Below are positions 6,010 through 30,550 of a stretch of DNA of 58,132 bases, one piece after another. The number at the start of each line of letters is the position of its first letter. Positions within the stretch are counted from its first letter, which is position 1. The stretch is taken from the NCBI GenBank assembly GCA_013298075.1, contig JAAFJG010000026.1, forward strand, positions 1-58,132. The letters are read 5' to 3'. Source of the stretch: Cytophagales bacterium. GTDB taxonomy: Bacteria > Bacteroidota > Bacteroidia > Cytophagales > Microscillaceae. The position numbers were made by a program, and so were the translations under genes. Below the pieces are notes generated by a model, which was given only the letters and a program-made list of their open reading frames with translations, ran no database searches and was not told the origin of the DNA.

Positions 6010-6707
6010 TACTAAGATTAGTAAATGGTTTCACACGTAAAAGTGGTAAACCTAAAAGACCTTGACAACTTCCTTTTCTGTAGTAGTGGAATTTTGCATT
6101 TTTAAAATTACAGAAAATTTTTATCATTTCTTATTTTTTAACATATCTTGTCCAAAGTCCAAAGAAAAATAAACAGAGAATAAGTTGCTTCGAAAAGTAC
6201 TCAATTGACACGTATTATTTTGTTTTATAGGTTGGATAAAAAAACAGATTTTCTTGAAAGAAAGCGAAAGATAAAATTTTATCTGAACTCTATTCGTTTT
6301 AGAAATTTTATAGGTTTTTATTTTATTTCAAACGTTTGCAATTATATAAGTTAGCATAAAAAGTAATTTTTATTATAATTTATATTGTTACAAAATAATA
6401 TTTTAAATTACATAGAAAAATGATTATAAATACAAAATTATAATTTGTTTTTATAAATAAATACAAAATAAAATTCTTTTATAATTGATAAAACACAAAA
6501 TTATATTTATAAATTAAAAAAATATAAAGTAAATAAAAATAAAATAGTTTTACAACTAAAATCTTTAAAAAGTGCAATAAATATTTAAAATATTCTATAA
6601 AAAAAATAAAAAATAATTATTTTCTTAAAAAAATGTTTTATTCTTTTGAAAAATAGCTTAGATTTGCAGTGCTTATTATAGCAAAATTTTTAAATTATTC
6701 TTAAATT
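6010..6707. other. AT-rich gene-free leader of the SusC gene
   Basis: About 700 bp with no credible gene on either strand and very high A+T. A TAGATTTG at 6659-6666 fits the Bacteroidota -7 box, but no TTTG lies at the usual spacing. The susC promoter assignment is therefore weak. Confidence 0.45.
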
Positions 6708-9700
6708 ATGTTAAAAAAAATTTACCTAACTTTATTTTTAGTGTGTTTTGGGATAGGAATATCTCTGGCACAATCTATCACAGGAAAAGTACTTGATAAT
6801 GACATAAAAACTGGAATGCCGGGAGTAAGTGTATTTATCAAAGGTACTACGCAAGGAACAACCACAGATGTTGAGGGCAATTACTCATTAGCCTCACAAT
6901 CTAATTCTGTTTTGGTTTTTCAATCGGTTGGTTATACGTCTCAAGAGGTTTTAGTTGGGACACAAAGTATTATCAACATAACATTATTATCTGATGTTAA
7001 AAATTTAACAGAAGCAGTCGTTATCGGATATGCTACTGTGGATTCAAGAGATGTTACAGGGGCGGTTGTTGGCGTAAAAGCTGACGAAATTAAAGACGTA
7101 CCTGCTCAAAGTTTTGAATCAATCTTACAAGGACGAGTTACTGGTGTTCAAATCACGTCAGGTAGTGGAAAAGTCGGACAGGGTTTTAATATTCGTGTTC
7201 GTGGTTCTTCTTCTTTGACAGGTGGAAATCAGCCTTTGTATGTAGTTGATGGTATTTTGATTACGTCTTCTTCAGTCAATTCAAATGATGAAGGTATTAA
7301 TCCAACGGCAGATATCAATCCAAATGATATTGAAAGTATTGATGTGTTAAAAGATGCAGCAGCTGCAGCCATTTATGGTTCACGTGGTTCAAATGGTGTA
7401 ATTTTAATCACAACTAAAAAAGGAAAAGCAGGAAAAAGTACTTTTAATGTTAATTTTTCATCTGGAATTAGTGAAGCAACTCGCAGAAGAGGATTTTTAA
7501 ATAGAAGTCAATATGTTGAATTACTTGGCGAATCTTTAAGAAACGCAGGACTTTCTCAAGTAGATGTGGAAAATCGATTAAATGTATTAAGCCCAACTTG
7601 GAGAGACCCTGATGTAGATACTAATTGGGAAAATTTAGTATTTAGGTCTGGTAAATTCAAACAATTAGATGTAAGTACTTCTGGTGGGAATGAAAAAACA
7701 ACTTATTATTTGGGCGGAAGTTATAATGATAGTGAAGGGATTATCATAGGAAATCGTTTTCAACGTTTGAGTGCGAGATTATCATTAGAAACCAAAGTAA
7801 ATGATAAATTTAAAATGGGTGGAAGTTTGATGTTAGCACGTAGCAAAAATTTTAGAGCGGCTGCTGATAATGGCTTCAACAATCAATTACAGTTAGTGGC
7901 AATGCCAAATATCCAAACTCCTTATGGCGCAGATGGTAAAACCAATTTAGGAACTCTCTATTACAATGCACTCACAGAATTAACCGATGCAAAAAATACG
8001 GCTGTAACGCTTCGTAATTTGACAAATATATATGGAGTCTATACAATTATTCCGGGTTTGACGTTGCGTAGCGAAGCAGGGTTAGATTTAATGTATTTGG
8101 TAGAAGAAACGTATAATGGCAGAAGAACAGCAGGTAATATAGGTGCAGCACAAGGACTTGGTACTTATAATACAACATTAGTAACTAATTATACGTTAAC
8201 TAATACTTTAAGTTATACTAAAAACATCAATAAAATGCACCAAATAGATGCGTTATTGGGTACAAGTTATCAACAAAGTGATTTTGAATCTTCGGGTGTA
8301 GAAGGACGTGTGTTTGCCAGTGATGATTTTAAAACCATTGCAAGTGCTGCCACTATTACTGCGGGAAGTTCATTTAAAACTAATTTTAATTTTTTATCTT
8401 ATTTTGCACGCGGTAGTTATAAATTTAACGATAGATATTTAGTATCTATTAGCGCAAGGTTAGATGGGTCTTCAAGATTTGCGCCCAAAACTCGTTACGG
8501 ATTTTATCCTGCTGCTTCTTTGGGTTGGGTTGCTTCAGAGGAAACTTTTATCAAATCTATCAAACAAATTAGTTTTTTAAAATTGCGTGTAGGATATGGC
8601 GCAACTGGAAATGCTGAGATAGGTAATTTTGATTATCTAGGATTGTATGGAACGAATGCTTATGGTTCTTCATCAGGAACATTGCCTACCAATGCTCCTA
8701 ATGCCAATTTAAAATGGGAAACTACTTATCAGTTTGATTCTGGTTTAGAAGTATCTTTGTTTGATGATAGATTAAGTTTAACACTAGATTTTTATCAAAA
8801 AAATACAAGAGATTTATTACTCAACGTACAAACTCCTTCTACTTCTGGTTTTACGATTCAAACTCAGAACTTAGGCAGAATAAGTAATCGTGGAATTGAA
8901 ATTGATATTAAATCAAAAAATTTAGTAGGTGAATTCAAATGGAACACTTCATTTAATATTTCTTTTAATCGTAACAGAGTTGATTTTACCAACGGACAAA
9001 TCATTGCACCGGGTAATAGAAATAGAGTCATCAACGAAGCAAGAGAAGGAGAAGCTATCGGAATTATGTATGGTGTAAAATATGCAGGAGTTAATCCGGC
9101 GAATGGCGATGCGCTGTATTATGCGCAAGATGGTAGCAAAACAAATAATTACACTAGTGCTTTTAGACAACAAATCGGTAATCCAAATCCAAACTTTATT
9201 GGAGGTTTAACAAATAGTTTTAGTTATAAAGGTTTAGAATTAACTATCTTTGCTCAATTCGTACAAGGAAATAATGTGTATAATATGGCAGGTAGTTTTA
9301 TGTCTTCAAATGGTGATGATTATGATAACCAAACTGTAGACCAATTAAGTAGATGGAGAAATCCGGGTGATATTACTAATGTTCCCCGAGCGAAATTTGG
9401 TGATGCAAATGGTACGCGTATGTCATCTCGTTATGTATATGATGGCTCTTATTTGCGTTTGAAAACAGTAACATTGGCTTATACCTTTCCAAAAAGTTGG
9501 TTAGAAAAATCTAAATTAAGTTCTGTAAGATTATATTTAATGGGACAAAATTTATTGACAAGAGTAGCCAGTGGTTTTCAAGGTTGGGATCCTGAGTTAA
9601 GTGCAGGATTTACCCAAACATCTAATCAAAGCTCTAATATTATTATGGGAAATGATTTTTATACGCCACCACAAGCAAGGACAATTACAGCAGGTATCAA

Positions 9701-9713
9701 CATTGGTTTCTAA
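6708..9713 (+). CDS. SusC/RagA family TonB-linked outer-membrane receptor
   Basis: A 1001-residue TonB-dependent importer. A signal peptide ends near SLAQ at residue 22. A carboxypeptidase-D regulatory-like domain follows (ITGKVLDNDIKTGMPGVSV, residues 24-110). The plug domain comes next, with the SusC signature DIESIDVLKDAAAAAIYGSR followed by NGVILITTKKG. The rest is a beta-barrel ending in aromatic ITAGINIGF, as outer-membrane barrels do. The SusD partner follows 21 bp downstream, so the pair should form a lid-and-barrel uptake complex in the outer membrane. No glycosidase or peptidase gene is linked, so the ligand (glycan, peptide or other) cannot be inferred. There is no anti-sigma or sigma pair next to it. 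Confidence 0.95.
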   Translation: MLKKIYLTLFLVCFGIGISLAQSITGKVLDNDIKTGMPGVSVFIKGTTQGTTTDVEGNYSLASQSNSVLVFQSVGYTSQEVLVGTQSIINITLLSDVKNLTEAVVIGYATVDSRDVTGAVVGVKADEIKDVPAQSFESILQGRVTGVQITSGSGKVGQGFNIRVRGSSSLTGGNQPLYVVDGILITSSSVNSNDEGINPTADINPNDIESIDVLKDAAAAAIYGSRGSNGVILITTKKGKAGKSTFNVNFSSGISEATRRRGFLNRSQYVELLGESLRNAGLSQVDVENRLNVLSPTWRDPDVDTNWENLVFRSGKFKQLDVSTSGGNEKTTYYLGGSYNDSEGIIIGNRFQRLSARLSLETKVNDKFKMGGSLMLARSKNFRAAADNGFNNQLQLVAMPNIQTPYGADGKTNLGTLYYNALTELTDAKNTAVTLRNLTNIYGVYTIIPGLTLRSEAGLDLMYLVEETYNGRRTAGNIGAAQGLGTYNTTLVTNYTLTNTLSYTKNINKMHQIDALLGTSYQQSDFESSGVEGRVFASDDFKTIASAATITAGSSFKTNFNFLSYFARGSYKFNDRYLVSISARLDGSSRFAPKTRYGFYPAASLGWVASEETFIKSIKQISFLKLRVGYGATGNAEIGNFDYLGLYGTNAYGSSSGTLPTNAPNANLKWETTYQFDSGLEVSLFDDRLSLTLDFYQKNTRDLLLNVQTPSTSGFTIQTQNLGRISNRGIEIDIKSKNLVGEFKWNTSFNISFNRNRVDFTNGQIIAPGNRNRVINEAREGEAIGIMYGVKYAGVNPANGDALYYAQDGSKTNNYTSAFRQQIGNPNPNFIGGLTNSFSYKGLELTIFAQFVQGNNVYNMAGSFMSSNGDDYDNQTVDQLSRWRNPGDITNVPRAKFGDANGTRMSSRYVYDGSYLRLKTVTLAYTFPKSWLEKSKLSSVRLYLMGQNLLTRVASGFQGWDPELSAGFTQTSNQSSNIIMGNDFYTPPQARTITAGINIGF

Positions 9714-9734
9714 CACTTAATCTTAATTTTAAAC

Positions 9735-11123
9735 ATGAAAAAAATAAATTTTTATATAGTAATTTTGACTCTCTTATTTGTATTTACAAAATGTAATTAT
9801 AAATTAGACGAACCCGTTCCACAACAAAGCTTTACGGTAGATATTGCATTTAATACACCAGAAGGTGCGCAAAATGCAATCATTGGAGTATACGGTATCA
9901 TCGCAGGTTCTACTTTGTATGGTGAAAGTATACAAATGGCTTCTGATTTGATGGGCGCAAGTGATGATTTTAATTGGAGAGGAACATTTTTTGCACAACG
10001 TGACTTACGTAATAAAAATATGGTATCTGATAATGGGATAGCAACGAATACTTGGATTACCGCTTATAGAGCAATCAATGCTTCTAATAGTGTATTAGAA
10101 AAACTTGATGTAATTACAAACCCCACTGATAAAAATACGGCAAGAGGTGAATTATTATTTTTGAGAGCATTATGTCATTTTGATTTAGTTAGATTATATG
10201 CACAACCTTGGGACGCAGCAGGAACAAATACAGGTCTGGGCGTGCCTCTTATGTTGGTAGCGAATAATTTTAATAAAGTTTCAAGAAACTCAATAGCAGA
10301 AGTATATGCACAAGTGATTCAAGATTTGCAAAATGCTGAGTCATTATTACCTGCAACTAATAATAACAGAGCCACTTCTTTTGCCGCAAAAGCATTATTA
10401 GCACGTGTATATTTACAACAAGGAAACTATACACAAGCGTTAGCAAAAGCAAATGATGTTATCTCAAATGGTAGTTATACATTAGGAAGCACCGTAAATG
10501 CTGTGTTTGATGGAAACAATACGCCAGAAGCAATATTTGAAATACAACAAACTTCTGTCAATAATGCAGGACAAACCAATTCAGGATTAGCTACTTTTTA
10601 TTCTAATCAAAATGGTATAGGACGAGGTGATATCGAAATTAGAGCCGAGCATTTGGCTTTATACACTATGGCTGACGCAAGACTTACTGAATTATTTTAT
10701 GTAGGAACAGGAAATAAACCGGGCGAACAAGCGTGTGGAAAATGGAAAAGTCCTGTCAAAAATTATAACATTATTCGTTTGGCTGAAATGTATTTAATTC
10801 GTGCTGAAGCGAATTTTAGAAATAGTACTTCTACAGGGGCAACACCTTTGGCTGATATTAATAGAATTCGTAACAGAGCAGGTTTAACTAATTTAGCTAC
10901 TGTAACTCTCAATAATATTTTATTAGAACGTCGTGTAGAGTTATGTTTTGAAGGACATAGATTGCACGACTTGAAAAGATTAAAACAAAATATTGTTATT
11001 TTGAATGGTACAACTACTGTGATTACTACCACTTTTCCATACAATTCTCCTAAAGCAGTTTTACCAATTCCTTTAAGAGAAATAAATGTAAATTCTAATT
11101 TAGTACAAAATCCTGGTTATTAG
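9735..11123 (+). CDS. SusD/RagB family nutrient-binding lipoprotein
   Basis: A 462-residue surface lipoprotein that caps the SusC barrel. The signal peptide runs MKKINFYIVILTLLFVF with lipobox TKC, so the mature protein starts at Cys20. The SusD N-terminal region follows (EGAQNAIIGVYGIIAGS), then LFLRALCHFDLVRLYAQPW, a classic SusD TPR segment. The RagB C-terminal block is present as IIRLAEMYLIRAEANFR, then INRIRNRAGLTNL and ILLERRVELCFEGHRLHDLKR. It is co-transcribed with the upstream SusC gene and closed by a strong terminator. Ligand unknown. Confidence 0.95.
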   Translation: MKKINFYIVILTLLFVFTKCNYKLDEPVPQQSFTVDIAFNTPEGAQNAIIGVYGIIAGSTLYGESIQMASDLMGASDDFNWRGTFFAQRDLRNKNMVSDNGIATNTWITAYRAINASNSVLEKLDVITNPTDKNTARGELLFLRALCHFDLVRLYAQPWDAAGTNTGLGVPLMLVANNFNKVSRNSIAEVYAQVIQDLQNAESLLPATNNNRATSFAAKALLARVYLQQGNYTQALAKANDVISNGSYTLGSTVNAVFDGNNTPEAIFEIQQTSVNNAGQTNSGLATFYSNQNGIGRGDIEIRAEHLALYTMADARLTELFYVGTGNKPGEQACGKWKSPVKNYNIIRLAEMYLIRAEANFRNSTSTGATPLADINRIRNRAGLTNLATVTLNNILLERRVELCFEGHRLHDLKRLKQNIVILNGTTTVITTTFPYNSPKAVLPIPLREINVNSNLVQNPGY

Positions 11124-25567: not shown

Positions 25568-25867
25568 TTATTTTTTCTCAGCAGGTTTAGCTTCTTTAGT
25601 TTCAGCAGGTTTAGCTTCTTTGCTTTCTTTAGCGTCAGCAGGTTTAGCTTCTTTACCTTCCTTAGCATCTTTACCTTCTTTACTTTCTTTATCGTCAGCA
25701 GGTTTAGCTTCTTTATCGTCAGCAGGTTTAGCGTCAGCAGGTTTAGCGTCAGCAGGTTTGTCAGTTTTAGTTGTGTCTGTATTTTCTTTTTTATGTTCAC
25801 CACCACCACAAGCAGTAAAAGAGAATGTAGCAACGGCTACGAAAGCAAGAATTTTTACAAATTTCAT
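25568..25867 (-). CDS. Small lipoprotein with Lys/Ala/Pro/Asp/Glu tandem repeats
   Basis: 99 residues. A lipoprotein signal peptide MKFVKILAFVAVATFSFTAC ends at Cys20, followed by GGGEHKKE. Residues 37-99 are low-complexity repeats built on AKPAD, KEAKPAD and KESKEGKD units, ending PAEKK. The repeat is extremely hydrophilic and proline-spaced and resembles wall- or envelope-spanning linkers. No folded domain remains. The repeats are encoded by near-identical DNA units (GCAGGTTTAGC on the plus strand), so length variation by slippage is likely. A long leucine-rich frame on the opposite strand and another in a shifted frame are by-products. Function unknown. Confidence 0.8.
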   Translation of the reverse strand: MKFVKILAFVAVATFSFTACGGGEHKKENTDTTKTDKPADAKPADAKPADDKEAKPADDKESKEGKDAKEGKEAKPADAKESKEAKPAETKEAKPAEKK

Positions 25868-25991: not shown

Positions 25992-26642
25992 CTAAAATTT
26001 TTCTTTTATTTCTTTTTTTGCAAATAAAATAAATTTATTTATTCGTAAAAGTTCTTCAAAATCTGGCGTATAAACCAATAAAGGTACTTTTTTTAATCTT
26101 TCATCTTTTTTATCAAAAGGACAATTTATTTTTGATTCAAATAATAAATTCCAACAATCAATCGAGGCACTGTGAAAAATAAACGGAATATTTGTAACTT
26201 CCCACTCTTCTAATTTCTCATTAATTTCTTCAAAAAAATCTTTGGTTTGTGCTAATCTAATCCTCGAACCCAATTTTGATTTTCCTTTGCTATTCAAATG
26301 TTTGAGTTGTGCTTTTCCTTGCGCAGCCCGAATCATATATTTTTTAATTACTTTATGATTGACTAATTTCCCTTCTTCATAATGTCCAATAGCTGCACTT
26401 CCCGCCTGTATCAAAAGCAAAATATAATCAGGAGGAAAAGGAGAAATATGACGTAAATAATTTTCAAGTGATTGATTTTCAATGATTTCATCTATCAATA
26501 AAGGAATATGATACGTTATTTTTTCATAGTCATTTTCTTTAAAAAGTATTCGTTTATCAATTTTCCACGCTTGTATATCAGGCAAAATTTCTTCTTGAAT
26601 TATATCATAAAAATTTTGATAAGGAATTATTTTTTCGTTCAT
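25992..26642 (-). CDS. Bacterial VLRF1 (Vms1/ANKZF1-like release factor) domain protein
   Basis: A 216-residue protein resembling the eRF1-like domain of eukaryotic Vms1/ANKZF1, which frees stalled chains from peptidyl-tRNA in ribosome quality control. Residues 74-98 (ILLLIQAGSAAIGHYEEGK, then VNHK) match the first strands. IKKYMIRAAQGKAQLKHLNS matches the family RYxxRAKxGxxQ block, with the candidate catalytic glutamine at Q112. SRIRLAQTKDFFEEINEKL is followed by a Trp. CPFDKKDERLKKVPLLVYTP then FEELLR matches the end of the domain. It lacks the zinc-finger and ankyrin parts of the eukaryotic proteins. The assignment rests on motif memory. Neighbours give no further clue. Confidence 0.72.
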   Translation of the reverse strand: MNEKIIPYQNFYDIIQEEILPDIQAWKIDKRILFKENDYEKITYHIPLLIDEIIENQSLENYLRHISPFPPDYILLLIQAGSAAIGHYEEGKLVNHKVIKKYMIRAAQGKAQLKHLNSKGKSKLGSRIRLAQTKDFFEEINEKLEEWEVTNIPFIFHSASIDCWNLLFESKINCPFDKKDERLKKVPLLVYTPDFEELLRINKFILFAKKEIKEKF

Positions 26643-26704
26643 TTTTTTTAAATAAATACTTTAGGAAATAAGTAAAAATATTATACCTAATAAAAACCTC
26701 TATC

Positions 26705-26742
26705 TATATAAAGCGTTGGCGTTAACGCCAACGCTTTATATA
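26705..26742. repeat. Perfect 38-bp palindrome
   Basis: Arm TATATAAAGCGTTGGCGTT is followed at once by its exact complement, with no spacer (centre 26723/26724). The core AGCGTTGGCGTTAACGCCAA is GC-rich against the surroundings. It lies between two minus-strand genes and could be a terminator (no T-run) or a repeat. Confidence 0.75.
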
Positions 26743-26783
26743 TTTGTTCATATTTCTAAATATAAAGTGAGTAAATTATTTTT

Positions 26784-27326
26784 TTATTCTTTAATTTGAG
26801 AAGCATTTTCTTCTTGACAATTTTTATTATAATAAGGTTTTACGTAAGAATTACCCAAATAAATTGCCTCTTCCCAATCTTTACACGCCATTTTTTTGTT
26901 TTTAAGATAAAAATGAGACATACCACGCCAGCCCATTGCTTCTGAATCTTTGGGTATTTTTTCTAAAAAAGTATTAAAATATGATAAGGCTTTAGTATAA
27001 TCTTTCAAATTATATTGAGCAATTCCGAGATTAAAATAGGCTTGAACGAGGTTTTTATCGTATTCTAAAGCGGTTTCGCAGTCTTTTATCATTTCTTTAT
27101 ATTTGCTCAATTCATAATACACTTGTCCTCTTTTGAGATACGCCTCTGCCCATTGTGGTTTTATTTTGATAGCTTTATTCAAATTTTTGAGGGCTTTTCC
27201 GTAGTTTCCATTTTCCATCAATTTTTTTGCCTCCTCAAAATTATTTTCTGCTTCTTGTGCTGTTAAATTCATCACAAAAAATACGCACACATATATATAA
27301 GTAAAAAATGTAAATAATCGTTTCAT
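26784..27326 (-). CDS. Secreted TPR protein
   Basis: 180 residues with a signal peptide (MKRLFTFFTYIYVCVFFVM, cleavage near LTAQ) and about three to four tetratricopeptide repeats: AKKLMENGNYGKALKNLNKA, AYLKRGQVYYELSKYKEMI, AYFNLGIAQYNLKDYTKALS and WRGMSHFYLKNKKMACKDW. The C-terminus has a small Cys-containing tail. TPR proteins of this kind act as periplasmic scaffolds; the partner is unknown. It lies downstream of the RiPP-like precursor gene on the same strand, but a terminator stands between them. Confidence 0.82.
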   Translation of the reverse strand: MKRLFTFFTYIYVCVFFVMNLTAQEAENNFEEAKKLMENGNYGKALKNLNKAIKIKPQWAEAYLKRGQVYYELSKYKEMIKDCETALEYDKNLVQAYFNLGIAQYNLKDYTKALSYFNTFLEKIPKDSEAMGWRGMSHFYLKNKKMACKDWEEAIYLGNSYVKPYYNKNCQEENASQIKE

Positions 27327-27442
27327 AAAATTTGAAAGTGTTTTATTCTATAAAACGTTTTTTTGTGTGAAATAATTAAAAATTGTGAGAAAATAAAAAA
27401 AATATTTTGTAATTTTTTTGTGGAGTAGATAAATATTCGAAA

Positions 27443-27479
27443 AAAATAGTCTGACCTTTATATTGGTGCAGACTATTTT
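27443..27479 (-). terminator. Terminator of the RiPP precursor gene
   Basis: AAAATAGTCTG pairs with CAGACTATTTT around a 15-nt loop just after the minus-strand stop codon, with T-rich flanks. Confidence 0.75.
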
Positions 27480-27492
27480 GTTATATTTTTTG

Positions 27493-28032
27493 TTAGAATA
27501 AGCCTTTTTGAGAGCGACAACGAGGTCCGCCGCCACCTCTTTTTCTGCCAATGTGAGGTCCTTTTCCTTTTTTTCCACCTACTACAGATTCCAATTCTGC
27601 TTCACTTAATTCGTCTTCGCTTTCTGCCAAATTAGGAATTAAAACGTGCATTTCTTTGTCAGTATTTTCGTGAAAATATAATTTAAAATCAGCAGGAACA
27701 AAATAATCAGGTAATTTTGCATTCAAAGTGCCTTTTGGGTCGGCTATTAATAATTTTCTAAACGAATCATTATGAATGGCTTCATCGAGCATTTTTTCTA
27801 CAGATTCATCAAGAGAATCACCAAATATCACATTTTCTGCTTTTACTAAAATAATGTGCATTTCGCGAAAATTATTTTCGTGAATATGAATTTTTATGTT
27901 TGTGTCCAGATTGCCACCAAATTCTTTTTCTATGATTGTTTTTGGATTTGCTAATAGTCCATTTCTGAAAGAAATATCAGTCTTTAAGCGGTCTGAATTT
28001 CCAATTTTTTCCAATAATTCTTTATGTGCCAT
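27493..28032 (-). CDS. RiPP precursor with tandem NHLP-type leader and Gly-Gly cleavage site
   Basis: A 179-residue protein that looks like a nitrile-hydratase-leader-peptide (NHLP) natural product precursor. Two related leader units are seen: residues 21-66 (SFRNGLLANPKTII... HENNFREMHIILV) and 90-138 (SFRKLLIADPKGTL... HENTDKEMHVLIP). They are followed by the secretion and cleavage motif ELSEAELESVVGG, ending at G153. The presumed core is 26 residues, very basic and Gly-rich, with one Cys and one His (GPHIGRKRGGGGPRCRSQK inside it). No modification enzyme, C39-peptidase exporter or immunity gene is adjacent. It could be an orphan precursor matured in trans, or an unmodified bacteriocin-like peptide. 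A leader this large and doubled is unusual. Confidence 0.75.
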   Translation of the reverse strand: MAHKELLEKIGNSDRLKTDISFRNGLLANPKTIIEKEFGGNLDTNIKIHIHENNFREMHIILVKAENVIFGDSLDESVEKMLDEAIHNDSFRKLLIADPKGTLNAKLPDYFVPADFKLYFHENTDKEMHVLIPNLAESEDELSEAELESVVGGKKGKGPHIGRKRGGGGPRCRSQKGLF

Positions 28033-28098
28033 ACTAAAAATAGATTAATGTGAAGGATACTTTATTAGCTTATTTATACGTAAAATTATTAAAAAAGT

Positions 28099-28128
28099 TT
28101 TGATAAAAAATAATTTTTTATATATTTG
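28099..28128 (+). promoter_or_regulatory. Promoter at the left cassette junction, pointing rightwards
   Basis: TTTG at 28099-28102, 18-bp spacer, TATATTTG at 28121-28128. It points into gene-free DNA and the 3' end of rloB on the opposite strand. The TATATTTG belongs to a direct repeat whose other copy precedes ogt, so this may be the displaced original ogt promoter. Confidence 0.55.
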
Positions 28129-28185
28129 CAAAATATTAAAAATTATATAAAAAAATACGCAAAATATTTAAAAAAACATACAAAA
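28118..28185 (+). repeat. Left 68-bp direct repeat flanking the RloAB module
   Basis: Matches 30664-30731 at 64 of 68 positions, in the same orientation. It includes TATATATTTGC, AATACGCAAAATAT and AAAAAAACATACAAAA. The DNA between the copies (28186-30663, about 2.5 kb) holds only the RloB/RloA-like genes, a family A end and two palindromes. Confidence 0.85.
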
Positions 28186-28192
28186 TAATTTG

Positions 28193-28215
28193 GTTCTTAG
28201 GAAATTATTGCAGAA
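28193..28215 (+). repeat. Solo family A end
   Basis: GGTTCTTAGGAAATTATTGC matches the end repeat of family A. No second end was found nearby. It sits immediately inside the left direct repeat. Confidence 0.65.
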
Positions 28216-28375
28216 TAATTTTTAGTATCCATAAATCTATTTATATATTCATTTTGTATTCTAAAAATAAATTCTCTCAAAAAATAAACAAACTTTTTTC
28301 AGATAAATAACGTTCTAAGGTCGTAGGAGTTGCTATTATTCGAATAGCCAAGTCAGAAAACTTCAAAAGTGATAA

Positions 28376-28408
28376 GTTTAAGTAACGCTTGGCTTAATAC
28401 TTAAACCA
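28376..28408. repeat. Palindromic repeat downstream of rloB
   Basis: GTTTAAGTA at 28376 pairs with TACTTAAAC at 28398-28406. The 33-bp unit matches 30616-30648 in the same orientation with three differences. It lies past the end of rloB and, with its twin, brackets the two-gene module. Nothing else is seen in 28216-28513. Confidence 0.75.
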
Positions 28409-28513
28409 GTTGAGAGTTTTAAGCCCATTATTTTGTAAAGGTAGTGTTTTTGCAACTTTATTGCAAAAATTATTTGAAATATTTTTTTTTGAAAATGTTT
28501 AAAAAAATGATTT

Positions 28514-29221
28514 TTATTCTCCCCTTTCAAATTTATCTTCTATTTCTTTTTTCAAAACATCAGAATTACCCAATAACTCTTCCACCAATTTATAAACTTG
28601 CGTAGCAGGATTAAAATCAGCATAATTTTCTCCTTCACAATCTTCCTCTAATTTTTTGGCTCTTCTAATTGCTTCCATTTGATTACCATACGTTTCTAAT
28701 ATCTCAAACATTTTTTCGTTATTTTTTTGATATTGAAATTTTTTTTTCTTGTTGATAATTTCGTTAATATGGGTTTCTATTTGTTTTTTATAATCTTCTC
28801 TGTTCATAGGCGTTGTACGAAGTTCGAAATGTAACAAAAACCATAATTCAAAAGCTTCATTACTCCAAGCACAAAATATTTCGTTTGCTTTTGCTTTTTT
28901 GATAGCATTATTAAATTTTTCATTAGGAAAATCATCTTTATCAAAAACAGCCCAAACTCTGTCATATTTTTGCCTTGAATTATTTTTCAATTCGATGGCT
29001 TTATCCACTACTTTTATAGTATCTATATTGCCACCTCCAAACTCGAGATGATAAATAATTTTTCCTATTTCTTTGGGGAAACTTTTGAAATAGTTAGGTT
29101 CTGTTTTTTCACCTTCACATACAATTAGAAAATAGATGGCTAATTCCTTATTTTTTTGTTGTGATTTTTTTGGTGAAAATTTTTTTGTTAATTGTTTGTC
29201 TAATTTTATTTTTCTTGCCAT
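28514..29221 (-). CDS. rloB: RloB-like TOPRIM-type nuclease
   Basis: A 235-residue protein of the RloB family, a TOPRIM-like fold paired with ABC ATPases. The first acidic motif is IVCEGEKTEPNYF (Glu36 and Glu38) and the second is VWAVFDKDDF (Asp94 and Asp96). A conserved SNEAFELWFLLHFE block at 120-133 follows. The N-terminus is basic (MARKIKLDKQLTKKFSPKKS). TOPRIM partners of ABC ATPases, such as AriB of PARIS and the OLD nucleases, act as effectors that cut nucleic acid after the ATPase senses infection; by analogy this is the predicted effector. It starts 14 bp after the ATPase gene, so the two form an operon. Family-level call is firm; defence role is inference. Confidence 0.85.
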   Translation of the reverse strand: MARKIKLDKQLTKKFSPKKSQQKNKELAIYFLIVCEGEKTEPNYFKSFPKEIGKIIYHLEFGGGNIDTIKVVDKAIELKNNSRQKYDRVWAVFDKDDFPNEKFNNAIKKAKANEIFCAWSNEAFELWFLLHFELRTTPMNREDYKKQIETHINEIINKKKKFQYQKNNEKMFEILETYGNQMEAIRRAKKLEEDCEGENYADFNPATQVYKLVEELLGNSDVLKKEIEDKFERGE

Positions 29222-29235
29222 TTTGATTTTATTTT

Positions 29236-30486
29236 TTAGTTGATTATGACAGGAATTGCTTCATATCGTCCTCTCATATAATTTTTTTCCAAATTAGAAT
29301 CATTGCGAACTTTATTTCCATCGGGCATATTAAAATCGTATAAAGAATATAAATCGGTTTGTTCAACTTTATTTTTTTGTGCAAACCAAATTTGGTCACG
29401 TCTAAAAAGTTCTGTACTCAATAAATTAGTATCGTGAGTAACAAATAAAAGTTGCGCTTTTTTAGGATTTGTTTTTGGATTATTAAACAAACTAATAATA
29501 TGTGTCGTAATCAAAGGGTGAAGTTTGGCATCAAGTTCATCAATAATCAATGATTTTCCATAAAATAAAGTGTCAAAAATAGGACCCGATAAATCAATTA
29601 TTTTTTTTGTTCCTTCTGATTCATTTTTATCTTTATCAAAGTTGATTTTGCCAATTATTTTTCCTTTTTTATTGTATGTATGATGAATAGTTTTTAATGT
29701 TTTTGTGGTCAATATTGGTTTTATATGATGAATAATTGAATCGGAATTATTATTTTGGTCAAATATTTTTTCTGTAATAATAATATCTTCAAAACCTAAT
29801 TGTAAAGTTTGAAAAAATGACAAGGACTCTTCATAACCTACTGATTTTTTATCAAACATATTCAAAGAAAATAATTGATAAGAATCGTGTCCAATTCCTG
29901 AGATAACATTATACTCCATAAATAATTTCATTATTTTTTGAGAAATTTCTCCTTTTAACTGTGATAAAAGAGAAATAAAAAGTCTATTATCATTGGTGAT
30001 TTCTTCTTTATTTTTTCCTTCTACAAATTTGTCAGACACAGCAATACCTTCTTCAGTTCTAATAAAAAATGGAATTTCTTTTTTATTTCCATAACTAACA
30101 TATAACCATTCATTTATAATTTTTTTTAAATTATATTCAAAACCATATCTAAATTTAGTATTTTCATTGGTATCAAGAAAAATAATCTCAAAAAATGTAG
30201 GGGCTGATTCATTTTCAACTGATAATAAAAACGGACTATAATCTAACTCGTCAGAATCATTTAATTTTACAGATTGAAATACATTTTGTTTCATTCTTCG
30301 AAATGCTTCGATAAGATTACTTTTACCGCTTGAATTTGCACCATAAATAACCAACGAAAGTAGTAGTTTATGTTTATCAGCAATCATAATATTTTCTTTT
30401 AATTCCGAAATTGGTTTGGCTTCAAAACTAATCGTTTTTTTTTGATAAAAAGAAAGAAAATTGCCTACCGTAAATTCTATGATCAT
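29236..30486 (-). CDS. rloA: RloA-like ABC ATPase (AAA15/AAA21, SMC-like)
   Basis: 416 residues from the ATG at 30486 (MIIEFTVGNFLSFYQKKTIS), the usual N-terminus of such ATPases. A farther ATA-rich upstream extension to 30549 overlaps the promoter and was rejected. Walker A is YGANSSGKSNL (residues 48-58), the ABC signature is SEGTKK (about 290-295), Walker B is LIIDELDAKLHP (about 313-324), and the switch His is in LLFVTHDTNLL. A long insertion without coiled-coil heptads lies between. Similar ATPases act as sensors in OLD, PARIS and Gabija-type defence. No restriction or modification genes are next to it, unlike the rlo genes first named beside type I systems. It is followed by RloB, 14 bp on. 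Confidence 0.85.
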   Translation of the reverse strand: MIIEFTVGNFLSFYQKKTISFEAKPISELKENIMIADKHKLLLSLVIYGANSSGKSNLIEAFRRMKQNVFQSVKLNDSDELDYSPFLLSVENESAPTFFEIIFLDTNENTKFRYGFEYNLKKIINEWLYVSYGNKKEIPFFIRTEEGIAVSDKFVEGKNKEEITNDNRLFISLLSQLKGEISQKIMKLFMEYNVISGIGHDSYQLFSLNMFDKKSVGYEESLSFFQTLQLGFEDIIITEKIFDQNNNSDSIIHHIKPILTTKTLKTIHHTYNKKGKIIGKINFDKDKNESEGTKKIIDLSGPIFDTLFYGKSLIIDELDAKLHPLITTHIISLFNNPKTNPKKAQLLFVTHDTNLLSTELFRRDQIWFAQKNKVEQTDLYSLYDFNMPDGNKVRNDSNLEKNYMRGRYEAIPVIIN

Positions 30487-30518
30487 TTTATTTTTTTTAT
30501 TATAATGAGATTTTTCCA

Positions 30519-30550
30519 CAAAAATAGAATGTTTTTTATAAAAATACAAA
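30519..30550 (-). promoter_or_regulatory. Promoter of the rloA-rloB operon
   Basis: On the minus strand: TTTG (30547-30550), 20-bp spacer, TATTTTTG (30519-30526). This matches TTTG-N20-TANNTTTG and lies 33 bp upstream of the ATG at 30486, supporting that start. Confidence 0.75.

What the first reader, a model, noticed from the sequence alone, without database searches (positions are those of the whole stretch)
27493..28032. Orphan RiPP precursor with two NHLP-type leader units and a Gly-Gly processing site
The 179-residue protein holds two related leader units (HENNFREMHIILV and HENTDKEMHVLIP are their best-matched parts), then ELSEAELESVVGG and a 26-residue, very basic, Gly-rich core with a single Cys. 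NHLP leaders are known from bacteriocin-like natural product families in which a C39 peptidase cuts after Gly-Gly. Two leader copies and no linked enzymes, exporter or immunity gene make this an unusual orphan. The core has one Ser and one Cys, so a lanthipeptide with several rings is unlikely.
Basis: partly seen in the sequence, partly recalled or inferred. Interest (0 to 1): 0.75.

Follow-up and report, generated by a model that had tools for sequence, protein, structure and literature searches.

The report
Exported basic peptide with doubled leader
A gene makes a small, strongly positively charged peptide behind a doubled "address label" domain; in the relatives examined the peptide itself is the best-kept part and occurs together with a matching cutter-exporter, which suggests a conserved secreted signal or weapon rather than the fast-changing modified antibiotic such labels usually carry.

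Summary
The 179-aa ORF (minus strand, 27493-28032) passes the NHLP-leader model (74.3 vs 50.9 bits, two stretches) and ends in ELSEAELESVVGG plus a 26-aa core, net charge +9, one Cys, one Ser.

It is no orphan at genome level. Other contigs hold an NHLP-type peptidase/ABC exporter (TIGR03796, 1010.7 bits) and an NHLP-type HlyD. Eight other genomes of the family carry the two-unit protein. All 9 carriers have the exporter (one just under cut-off), 8 of 9 the HlyD. Two carry precursor-HlyD-exporter side by side, a third precursor-HlyD.

Unusually, the core is the most conserved part: its identity exceeds the leader's in 36 of 36 pairs, against 13 of 406 pairs of single-unit Bacteroidota NHLPs. 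LanC-like and YcaO matches are absent from 7 of 9 carriers.

Best reading: the exporter cuts at Gly-Gly and secretes a conserved, probably little-modified cationic peptide of unknown target. An NHLP of Microscilla marina, probably the same gene, was listed in 2010: a new variant of a known kind.

The parts
27493..28032 (-). Two-unit NHLP precursor gene, 179 aa plus stop
   Evidence: ORF; TIGR03793 74.3 bits against cut-off 50.9; homologues in 8 other genomes
27832..28023 (-). Leader unit 1 (residues 4-67), NHase-alpha/NHLP-like, without its own Gly-Gly
   Evidence: TIGR03793 match at 27817-27993, 33.8 bits; Pfam NHase_alpha at residues 19-61, 20.4 bits, under its cut-off of 27.2; helices 3-38 and strands 47-62 in the model
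27625..27807 (-). Leader unit 2 (residues 76-136), closest to solved NHLP leaders
   Evidence: TIGR03793 match at 27574-27801, 44.2 bits; 8tb1 2.2e-10 and 9cjx 2.2e-7; helices 76-106 and strands 117-132
27574..27609 (-). L(X)4L helix and Gly-Gly cleavage site (residues 142-153, LSEAELESVVGG)
   Evidence: L142, L147, G152, G153 invariant in 9 of 9 two-unit homologues and in all 38 rows of A2 (the 29 single-unit rows were picked by an EL..GG motif); position matches the LXXXXL motif at -12 to -7 described in PMC10858898 (passage)
27496..27573 (-). Predicted released peptide (residues 154-179), 26 aa, net +9, one Cys; calculated unmodified monoisotopic mass 2761.56
   Evidence: Most conserved region of the protein, mean pairwise identity 0.745; 62% of amino-acid-identical codon pairs differ synonymously; mass
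27431..27491 (-). Inverted repeat just after the stop codon, a possible terminator of a single-gene transcript
   Evidence: 23-nt arms, 78% complementary, 15-nt loop; not listed by the terminator scan, which allows loops of 3-8 nt only; weak

Best explanation
The gene encodes the precursor of a secreted cationic peptide. The two NHase-alpha-like units form a folded double leader. The L(X)4L helix ending in Gly-Gly presents the cut site to the C39 peptidase domain of the NHLP-type ABC exporter encoded on another contig (G000:C143). That exporter, with its HlyD partner (G000:C147) and presumably a TolC-like outer-membrane channel, cuts after Gly-Gly and secretes about 26 residues (KKGKGPHIGRKRGGGGPRCRSQKGLF). 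The peptide is probably unmodified or touched only at its invariant Cys (for example a disulfide dimer). Because the peptide itself is held constant across genera, it most likely acts on a constant partner: a self-directed signal or surface-acting factor more likely than an arms-race bacteriocin. Shown: gene, leader homology, exporter and HlyD presence, co-occurrence, neighbouring genes in three relatives, core conservation. Inferred: cleavage, export, lack of modification, role.
For: TIGR03793 over cut-off. Exporter with C39 domain over the TIGR03796 cut-off in this genome (1010.7 vs 853.3), C39 match 128.1 bits. HlyD over the TIGR03794 cut-off. Co-occurrence: 9 of 9 two-unit genomes have the exporter (8 over cut-off, G011 at 842.4) against 1 of the 6 other genomes of the family, Fisher p = 0.002, not corrected for phylogeny; the two same-genus genomes (91% and 79% complete) lack precursor, exporter and HlyD alike. 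TIGR03796 rang in 0 of 14 control genomes. Gene order precursor-HlyD-exporter on one strand in G005 and G014, precursor-HlyD in G003. Core conserved above the leader in 36 of 36 pairs, against 13 of 406 in single-unit NHLPs. Core conserved as peptide while its codons change. No LanC-like or YcaO match in 7 of 9 carriers including this genome.
Against: In 7 of 9 carriers the exporter lies on another contig than the precursor, so the pairing rests on co-occurrence there. G010 has exporter and HlyD but no precursor at E <= 0.001. G013 lacks a detected HlyD (82% complete). The G011 exporter is under the cut-off and reads in two overlapping frames. Three radical-SAM proteins of this genome stay unassigned. 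In G005 and G014 a gene that looks to me, without a family search, like a methyltransferase lies about 3.7 kb upstream of the precursor. Methyltransferases, glycosyltransferases, ATP-grasp and other modifiers were not searched, and the peptide-arginase search had no positive control. The single-unit comparison set contains paralogues of one genome, which may diverge faster in the core than orthologues. No TolC was looked for. Nothing shows expression.
Confidence: 0.62

Rival explanations
1. It is an ordinary RiPP: an unlinked enzyme (YcaO as proposed for Microscilla marina in 2010, a LanC-type enzyme, or a radical-SAM enzyme) modifies the core before export.
For: Haft 2010 (PMC2887384, section 5 read) names the unlinked M. 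marina cyclodehydratase-docking scaffold protein as supporting an NHLP link; G005 and G014 do hold one YcaO match each and 2 and 4 LanC-like matches, on other contigs than the precursor. The Cys is invariant. Three radical-SAM proteins of this genome are unassigned. A methyltransferase-like gene, judged by eye, lies about 3.7 kb from the precursor in G005 and G014.
Against: 7 of 9 carriers, this genome among them, lack YcaO and LanC-like matches at E <= 1e-5. Cores hold one Cys and 0-3 Ser/Thr; Microscilla-type cores no Ser or Thr, so at most one azole and no lanthionine there. I saw no modifying enzyme between the three genes in G005 and G014, and the gene just upstream in G005 matches no Pfam family.
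Confidence: 0.2
2. It is an antimicrobial peptide (unmodified bacteriocin) that kills competitors.
For: High charge (+8 to +18) and short length; NHLP exporters are annotated as bacteriocin exporters.
Against: Core conservation across genera is opposite to the hypervariability of NHLP cores. Only 2-3 hydrophobic residues per core, so membrane lysis by an amphipathic helix is unlikely. No immunity gene was recognised among the five annotated neighbours, though unknown genes could serve.
Confidence: 0.3
3. The protein is not processed; the basic tail works inside the cell, for example binding nucleic acid.
For: RGG-like basic tail; low-confidence (probably disordered) tail in the model.
Against: Invariant Gly-Gly and L(X)4L helix; joint presence and absence with exporter and HlyD; neighbouring HlyD and exporter genes in relatives.
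Confidence: 0.08

Closest known systems
NHLP precursors (TIGR03793; Haft, Basu and Mitchell 2010, PMC2887384; abstract and sections 5, 7, 9 read, passages of 6, 8 and 10 seen)
   Same: NHase-alpha-like leader without the metal site, ends in Gly-Gly, co-occurs with TIGR03794 and TIGR03796 transporters. That paper lists an M. marina NHLP and HlyD and peptidase-ABC proteins with consecutive accessions, the arrangement seen here in G005 and G014. I did not see the M. marina sequence; that it is the same gene is inferred.
   Different: Two leader units in one protein; the core is conserved instead of hypervariable; it is poor in Cys, Ser and Thr; 7 of 9 carriers have no YcaO or LanC-like match.
Proteusin leaders MprE7 (8tb1) and DprE2 (9cjx)
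   Same: Unit 2 matches both by profile and has the L(X)4L motif at -12 to -7 (passage of PMC10858898).
   Different: Those are single-unit leaders; MprE leaders serve a modifying enzyme (YcaO MprC, PMC12455567, abstract and passages seen), a kind not found in this genome.
BMA_0021/BMA_0022 family TOMM bacteriocin (TIGR03795)
   Same: Second-best NCBIfam match, 31.1 bits. Haft 2010 reports fused tandem pairs in Delftia and Acidovorax (passage).
   Different: Below its cut-off of 41. There, as I read the passage, whole precursor pairs are fused; here unit 1 has no Gly-Gly and no core.
Double-glycine peptides with C39-ABC exporters
   Same: Gly-Gly expected to be cut by a C39 domain (recalled rule of the family), little or no modification. 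This genome also has a separate candidate set on contig C116.
   Different: Leader here is a folded protein of about 150 residues, not a short helix.

Membership tests
NHLP precursor (TIGR03793) | Leader passes the NHLP model | tested here: met
   74.3 bits vs cut-off 50.9 for the whole protein; each unit alone is below it at 44.2 and 33.8
NHLP precursor (TIGR03793) | Gly-Gly at the end of the leader | tested here: met
   Invariant in 9 of 9 two-unit homologues
NHLP precursor (TIGR03793) | No catalytic CxxCSC metal motif of nitrile hydratase | tested here: met
   The only Cys of the 179 residues is in the core
NHLP precursor (TIGR03793) | Co-occurs with TIGR03794 and TIGR03796 transporters | tested here: met
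   Exporter 9 of 9 (one just under cut-off), HlyD 8 of 9
NHLP precursor (TIGR03793) | Hypervariable core, in many members rich in Cys, Ser and Thr (typical, not strictly defining) | tested here: not met
   Core is the most conserved region; 1 Cys, 0-3 Ser/Thr
TOMM | YcaO cyclodehydratase in the genome | tested here: not met
   No PF02624 match in G000; present in 2 of 9 carriers; rings in 5 of 14 controls
Lanthipeptide | LanC-type cyclase domain | tested here: not met
   No PF05147 match in G000; present in 2 of 9 carriers; rings in 1 of 14 controls
Radical-SAM modified proteusin | NHLP-associated radical-SAM maturase | tested here: inconclusive
   10 PF04055 matches in G000: 6 over a curated cut-off for another enzyme (MiaB, MtaB, HemW, LipA, RimO, RlmN), 1 QueE-like below cut-off, 3 unassigned and below every cut-off listed
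Secreted peptide | Mature peptide in the medium | not testable with these tools
   Needs culture and mass spectrometry

The most novel reading that the evidence does not exclude
In Microscillaceae an NHLP leader was duplicated once inside its gene and turned from a platform for modifying enzymes into a pure export carrier for one invariant, unmodified cationic peptide that serves the producer itself (an exported signal or surface factor): an NHLP-derived, non-RiPP secreted peptide whose core evolves more slowly than its leader.
Probability: 0.35. Interest if true: 0.7.

Novelty: new variant of a known kind. Interest (0 to 1): 0.5.

Why it matters
NHLP leaders are known as folded recognition platforms for enzymes that modify fast-changing cores. 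A family where the leader is doubled, most carriers lack the two usual kinds of modifying enzyme tested, and the core is the slowest-changing part would separate the export role of the leader from its enzyme-recruiting role. It also argues against filing the M. marina gene, if it is the same gene, as an azole-peptide precursor on the strength of an unlinked YcaO, and gives a single defined peptide whose calculated mass (3879.31 for the G005/G014 type) can be looked for in a cultured relative.

Tried and rejected
Named-genome scan with the single protein found no relative; the alignment scan found 7 named loci. Plasmid records: no match. Core alone against PDB sequences: 0 matches up to E 10. 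First AlphaFold job (9 rows) was poor, mean pLDDT 53.2; the second (38 rows) gave 78.1. Foldseek against PDB: ranks 1-39 are nitrile hydratase alpha or thiocyanate hydrolase chains, E 3.9e-4 to 0.071, TM about 0.4, rmsd about 8-10, and the NHLP leader 9cjx is rank 42 at E 0.62; this supports the fold family but weakly.

Considered and rejected: the C116 C39 exporter as processing partner (444.3 bits, below the TIGR03796 cut-off; it sits among its own Gly-Gly small ORFs). Peptide arginase: 0 of 146 genomes, but nothing rang in the 14 controls either, so this is no evidence of absence. RNA families at gathering threshold in 26600-29300: none. Sigma-70 scan: 5 sites against a shuffle mean of 8.2; the two terminator-like sites (shuffle mean 0.4) are on the other strand inside the gene. 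A stretch of contig C64 around the chance-level third NHLP match was fetched (L010) and not studied further. Literature: 'NHLP' with 'Microscilla' gives only PMC2887384; searches for tandem, double or fused leaders listed no title or abstract on a two-unit NHLP, of which one search showed 15 of 28 papers; the library holds open-licence papers only.

Mistakes and repairs: one search read minus-strand loci in the wrong orientation and was redone; one search read only some files and was redone.

Full report
What is there. The ORF at 27493-28032 lies on the minus strand and encodes 179 aa. NCBIfam TIGR03793 (NHLP leader) matches it at 5.3e-21 and 74.3 bits, above the curated 50.9, in two stretches. 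In a genome scan the two stretches score 44.2 (27574-27801) and 33.8 bits (27817-27993); neither alone passes the cut-off. A profile of the family matches solved proteusin leaders with unit 2 (8tb1, 2.2e-10; 9cjx, 2.2e-7). It also matches nitrile hydratase alpha chains with its best part starting in unit 1 (1v29, columns 20-83, 2.6e-4 for the whole sequence), but there no stretch passes on its own. Pfam NHase_alpha touches unit 1 at 20.4 bits, under its cut-off of 27.2. AlphaFold2 on a 38-row alignment (mean pLDDT 78.1, pTM 0.57; the other four models 61.2-72.6) gives two units of three helices and two strands, a helix at 144-151 and a tail at low confidence. The first job on 9 rows was poor (pLDDT 53.2). 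Foldseek ranks 1-39 in the PDB are nitrile hydratase alpha or thiocyanate hydrolase chains, with modest scores (best E 3.9e-4, TM about 0.4, rmsd 9.5).

Relatives. In 146 genomes (own plus 145 relatives) 10 match at E <= 0.01: this genome, 8 of the same family at full length (47-64% identity to this protein), and one distant single-unit NHLP, G108. The family as sampled has 15 genomes, so 9 of 15 carry the two-unit gene. The two same-genus genomes (91% and 79% complete) do not. The alignment scan of named genomes returned 7 loci titled Microscillaceae (4), Microscilla sp., Cytophagales and Bacteroidetes; equal contig lengths tie them to G003, G004, G005, G006, G011, G012 and G013.

One duplication. 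In a midpoint-rooted FastTree of 18 units and 29 single-unit leaders, all 9 first units group together (support 0.53), all 9 second units group together (0.99), and the two groups are sisters (0.81). A single duplication inside the gene before the family's genera split is the simplest reading; with about 60 columns the tree is weak. In 395 genomes of the phylum TIGR03793 rang in 14 at E <= 1e-5, and only this genome showed two matches in one open frame (own reading of the listed places). I also read 11 longer stop-to-stop frames (145 aa or more, from ten of these loci searched, some the same gene seen twice): each shows one unit. A more divergent second unit could still be missed in genomes I did not read.

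The core. In all 9 homologues Gly-Gly is followed by 24-31 residues on the plan GPH(I/V)GR-x-RGG-x-x-P-x-C-R; net charge +8 to +18, one Cys, 0-3 Ser/Thr, 2-3 hydrophobic residues. Mean pairwise identity is 0.48 for unit 1, 0.64 for unit 2, 0.745 for the core and 0.83 for its GPH..CR part. With pairwise alignments, core identity exceeds leader identity in 36 of 36 pairs of the two-unit family but in 13 of 406 pairs of 29 single-unit Bacteroidota NHLPs; at leader identity 0.55-0.75 the cores are 0.75 and 0.24 identical. Those 29 were chosen by hand from the 49 ORFs a motif search found; several are paralogues of one genome, so the comparison is not orthologue against orthologue. Among codon pairs with the same amino acid, 62% differ in the core (52-61% in the other regions), so the peptide, not the DNA, is conserved. 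Haft and colleagues describe hypervariable cores for NHLPs (PMC2887384, section 7). This family does the reverse.

Export partners. C39 peptidase (PF03412) matches three places in this genome. One, G000:C143:48441-48830, belongs to a 725-aa protein that passes TIGR03796 (NHLP export ABC transporter with peptidase) at 1010.7 bits vs 853.3; the C116 ABC protein scores 444.3 and fails. HlyD of the NHLP type (TIGR03794) is at G000:C147:2823-3743, 270.7 bits for its two stretches together vs 156.2. TIGR03796 rang in 12 of 146 genomes at E <= 1e-150, 11 over cut-off: all 9 two-unit carriers (G011 at 842.4 bits, read in two overlapping frames), plus G010, G104 and G108; it rang in 0 of 14 controls. 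TIGR03794 passed its cut-off in 11 of 146: 8 of 9 carriers (not G013, 82% complete), plus G010, G104 and G108; 18 further genomes had matches under the cut-off, and 3 of 14 controls rang, none over it. Within the family, exporter presence is 9 of 9 with the precursor and 1 of 6 without, Fisher p = 0.002, without correction for shared ancestry. G010 is the exception: exporter and HlyD, but no precursor found even with the family profile. In G005 and G014 the order is precursor, HlyD, exporter on one strand; in G003 the HlyD match starts 169 bases after the last precursor codon on the same strand. In 7 of 9 carriers, G003 included, the exporter lies on another contig than the precursor. G104 and G108 carry several single-unit NHLP precursors within about 15 kb of the exporter genes, and G108 also a DUF4135 (LanM-type, recalled) enzyme: the usual kind of cluster.

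Modification. LanC-like (PF05147) matches occur in 23 of 146 genomes but among the 9 carriers only in G005 and G014; YcaO (PF02624) in 9 of 146, again only G005 and G014 among the carriers, each on other contigs than the precursor. This genome has 10 radical-SAM matches: MiaB, MtaB, HemW, LipA, RimO and RlmN over their curated cut-offs, one QueE-like, and three unassigned, below every cut-off listed and on contigs C114, C93 and C8. So the suggestion in Haft 2010 (section 5) that the unlinked scaffold protein of M. marina supports an azole product is not borne out by the wider family, if that gene is the same: seven carriers keep the same core without YcaO. Against this reading, a gene that looks to me like a methyltransferase (no family search made) lies about 3.7 kb upstream of the precursor in G005 and G014, and other modifiers were not searched.

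Mechanism. The L(X)4L motif at -12 to -7 described for proteusin leaders (PMC10858898, passages) is present and invariant here (L142, L147). I infer that unit 2 plus this helix dock the precursor on the C39 domain, which cuts after Gly-Gly as the peptide passes the ABC-HlyD-(TolC) channel. What unit 1 adds is unknown; its lower conservation suggests a supporting role such as solubility, avidity or masking of the charged tail. A conserved core argues for a constant partner, so I favour a producer-directed signal or surface factor over an arms-race toxin, without direct evidence.

Neighbourhood. On this contig the precursor lies between a TPR protein (26784-27326) and an AbiL-type defence pair (28514-30549). 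In the part of the clustering that was shown (its output was cut in the middle) I saw no gene family recurring directly beside the precursors apart from HlyD and ABC proteins.

Verdict. The sequence observation is right, the NHLP label is right, 'orphan' is wrong at genome level, and 'RiPP' is unproven. It is a new variant of a known kind.

Noticed in passing
window 28514-30549 (-): Two-gene AbiL-type abortive-infection system next to the precursor: RloB/AbiLii (PADLOC 1.5e-30) and AbiLi ATPase (8.7e-87).
   Followed up: partly
L008 (G000:C116:1-20000): Separate Gly-Gly peptide system: four small ORFs starting MSVLQKFEKFALTKEQGN or a near variant, each with a KGG site, a C39-VKOR protein with a weak thioredoxin match (6010-7554) and a C39 ABC exporter (7763-9982), interleaved with long similar proteins that look OmpA-like at the C-terminus (by eye); the four small ORFs match no Pfam family at E <= 0.01.
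   Followed up: partly
G000:C147:2823-3743, G003:C45:3049-3951, G010:C20:16556-17461: The NHLP-type HlyD of these three genomes skips roughly model positions 116-227, so its middle part seems shortened compared with the other HlyD proteins over the cut-off.
   Followed up: no
L034 (G108) and L036 (G104): Multi-precursor single-unit NHLP clusters in other families of the same order, with exporter, HlyD and, in G108, a DUF4135 enzyme.
   Followed up: no
G010:C18 and G010:C20: NHLP exporter and HlyD without any detectable NHLP precursor: a lost, missing or unrecognised substrate.
   Followed up: partly
window 25568-25867 (-): Small lipoprotein-like protein made of Ala-Lys-Pro-Asp/Glu repeats, with long ORFs open in other frames of the same stretch.
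   Followed up: no
window 25992-26642 (-): Bacteroidetes VLRF1 release-factor family protein, Pfam 100.3 bits.
   Followed up: no
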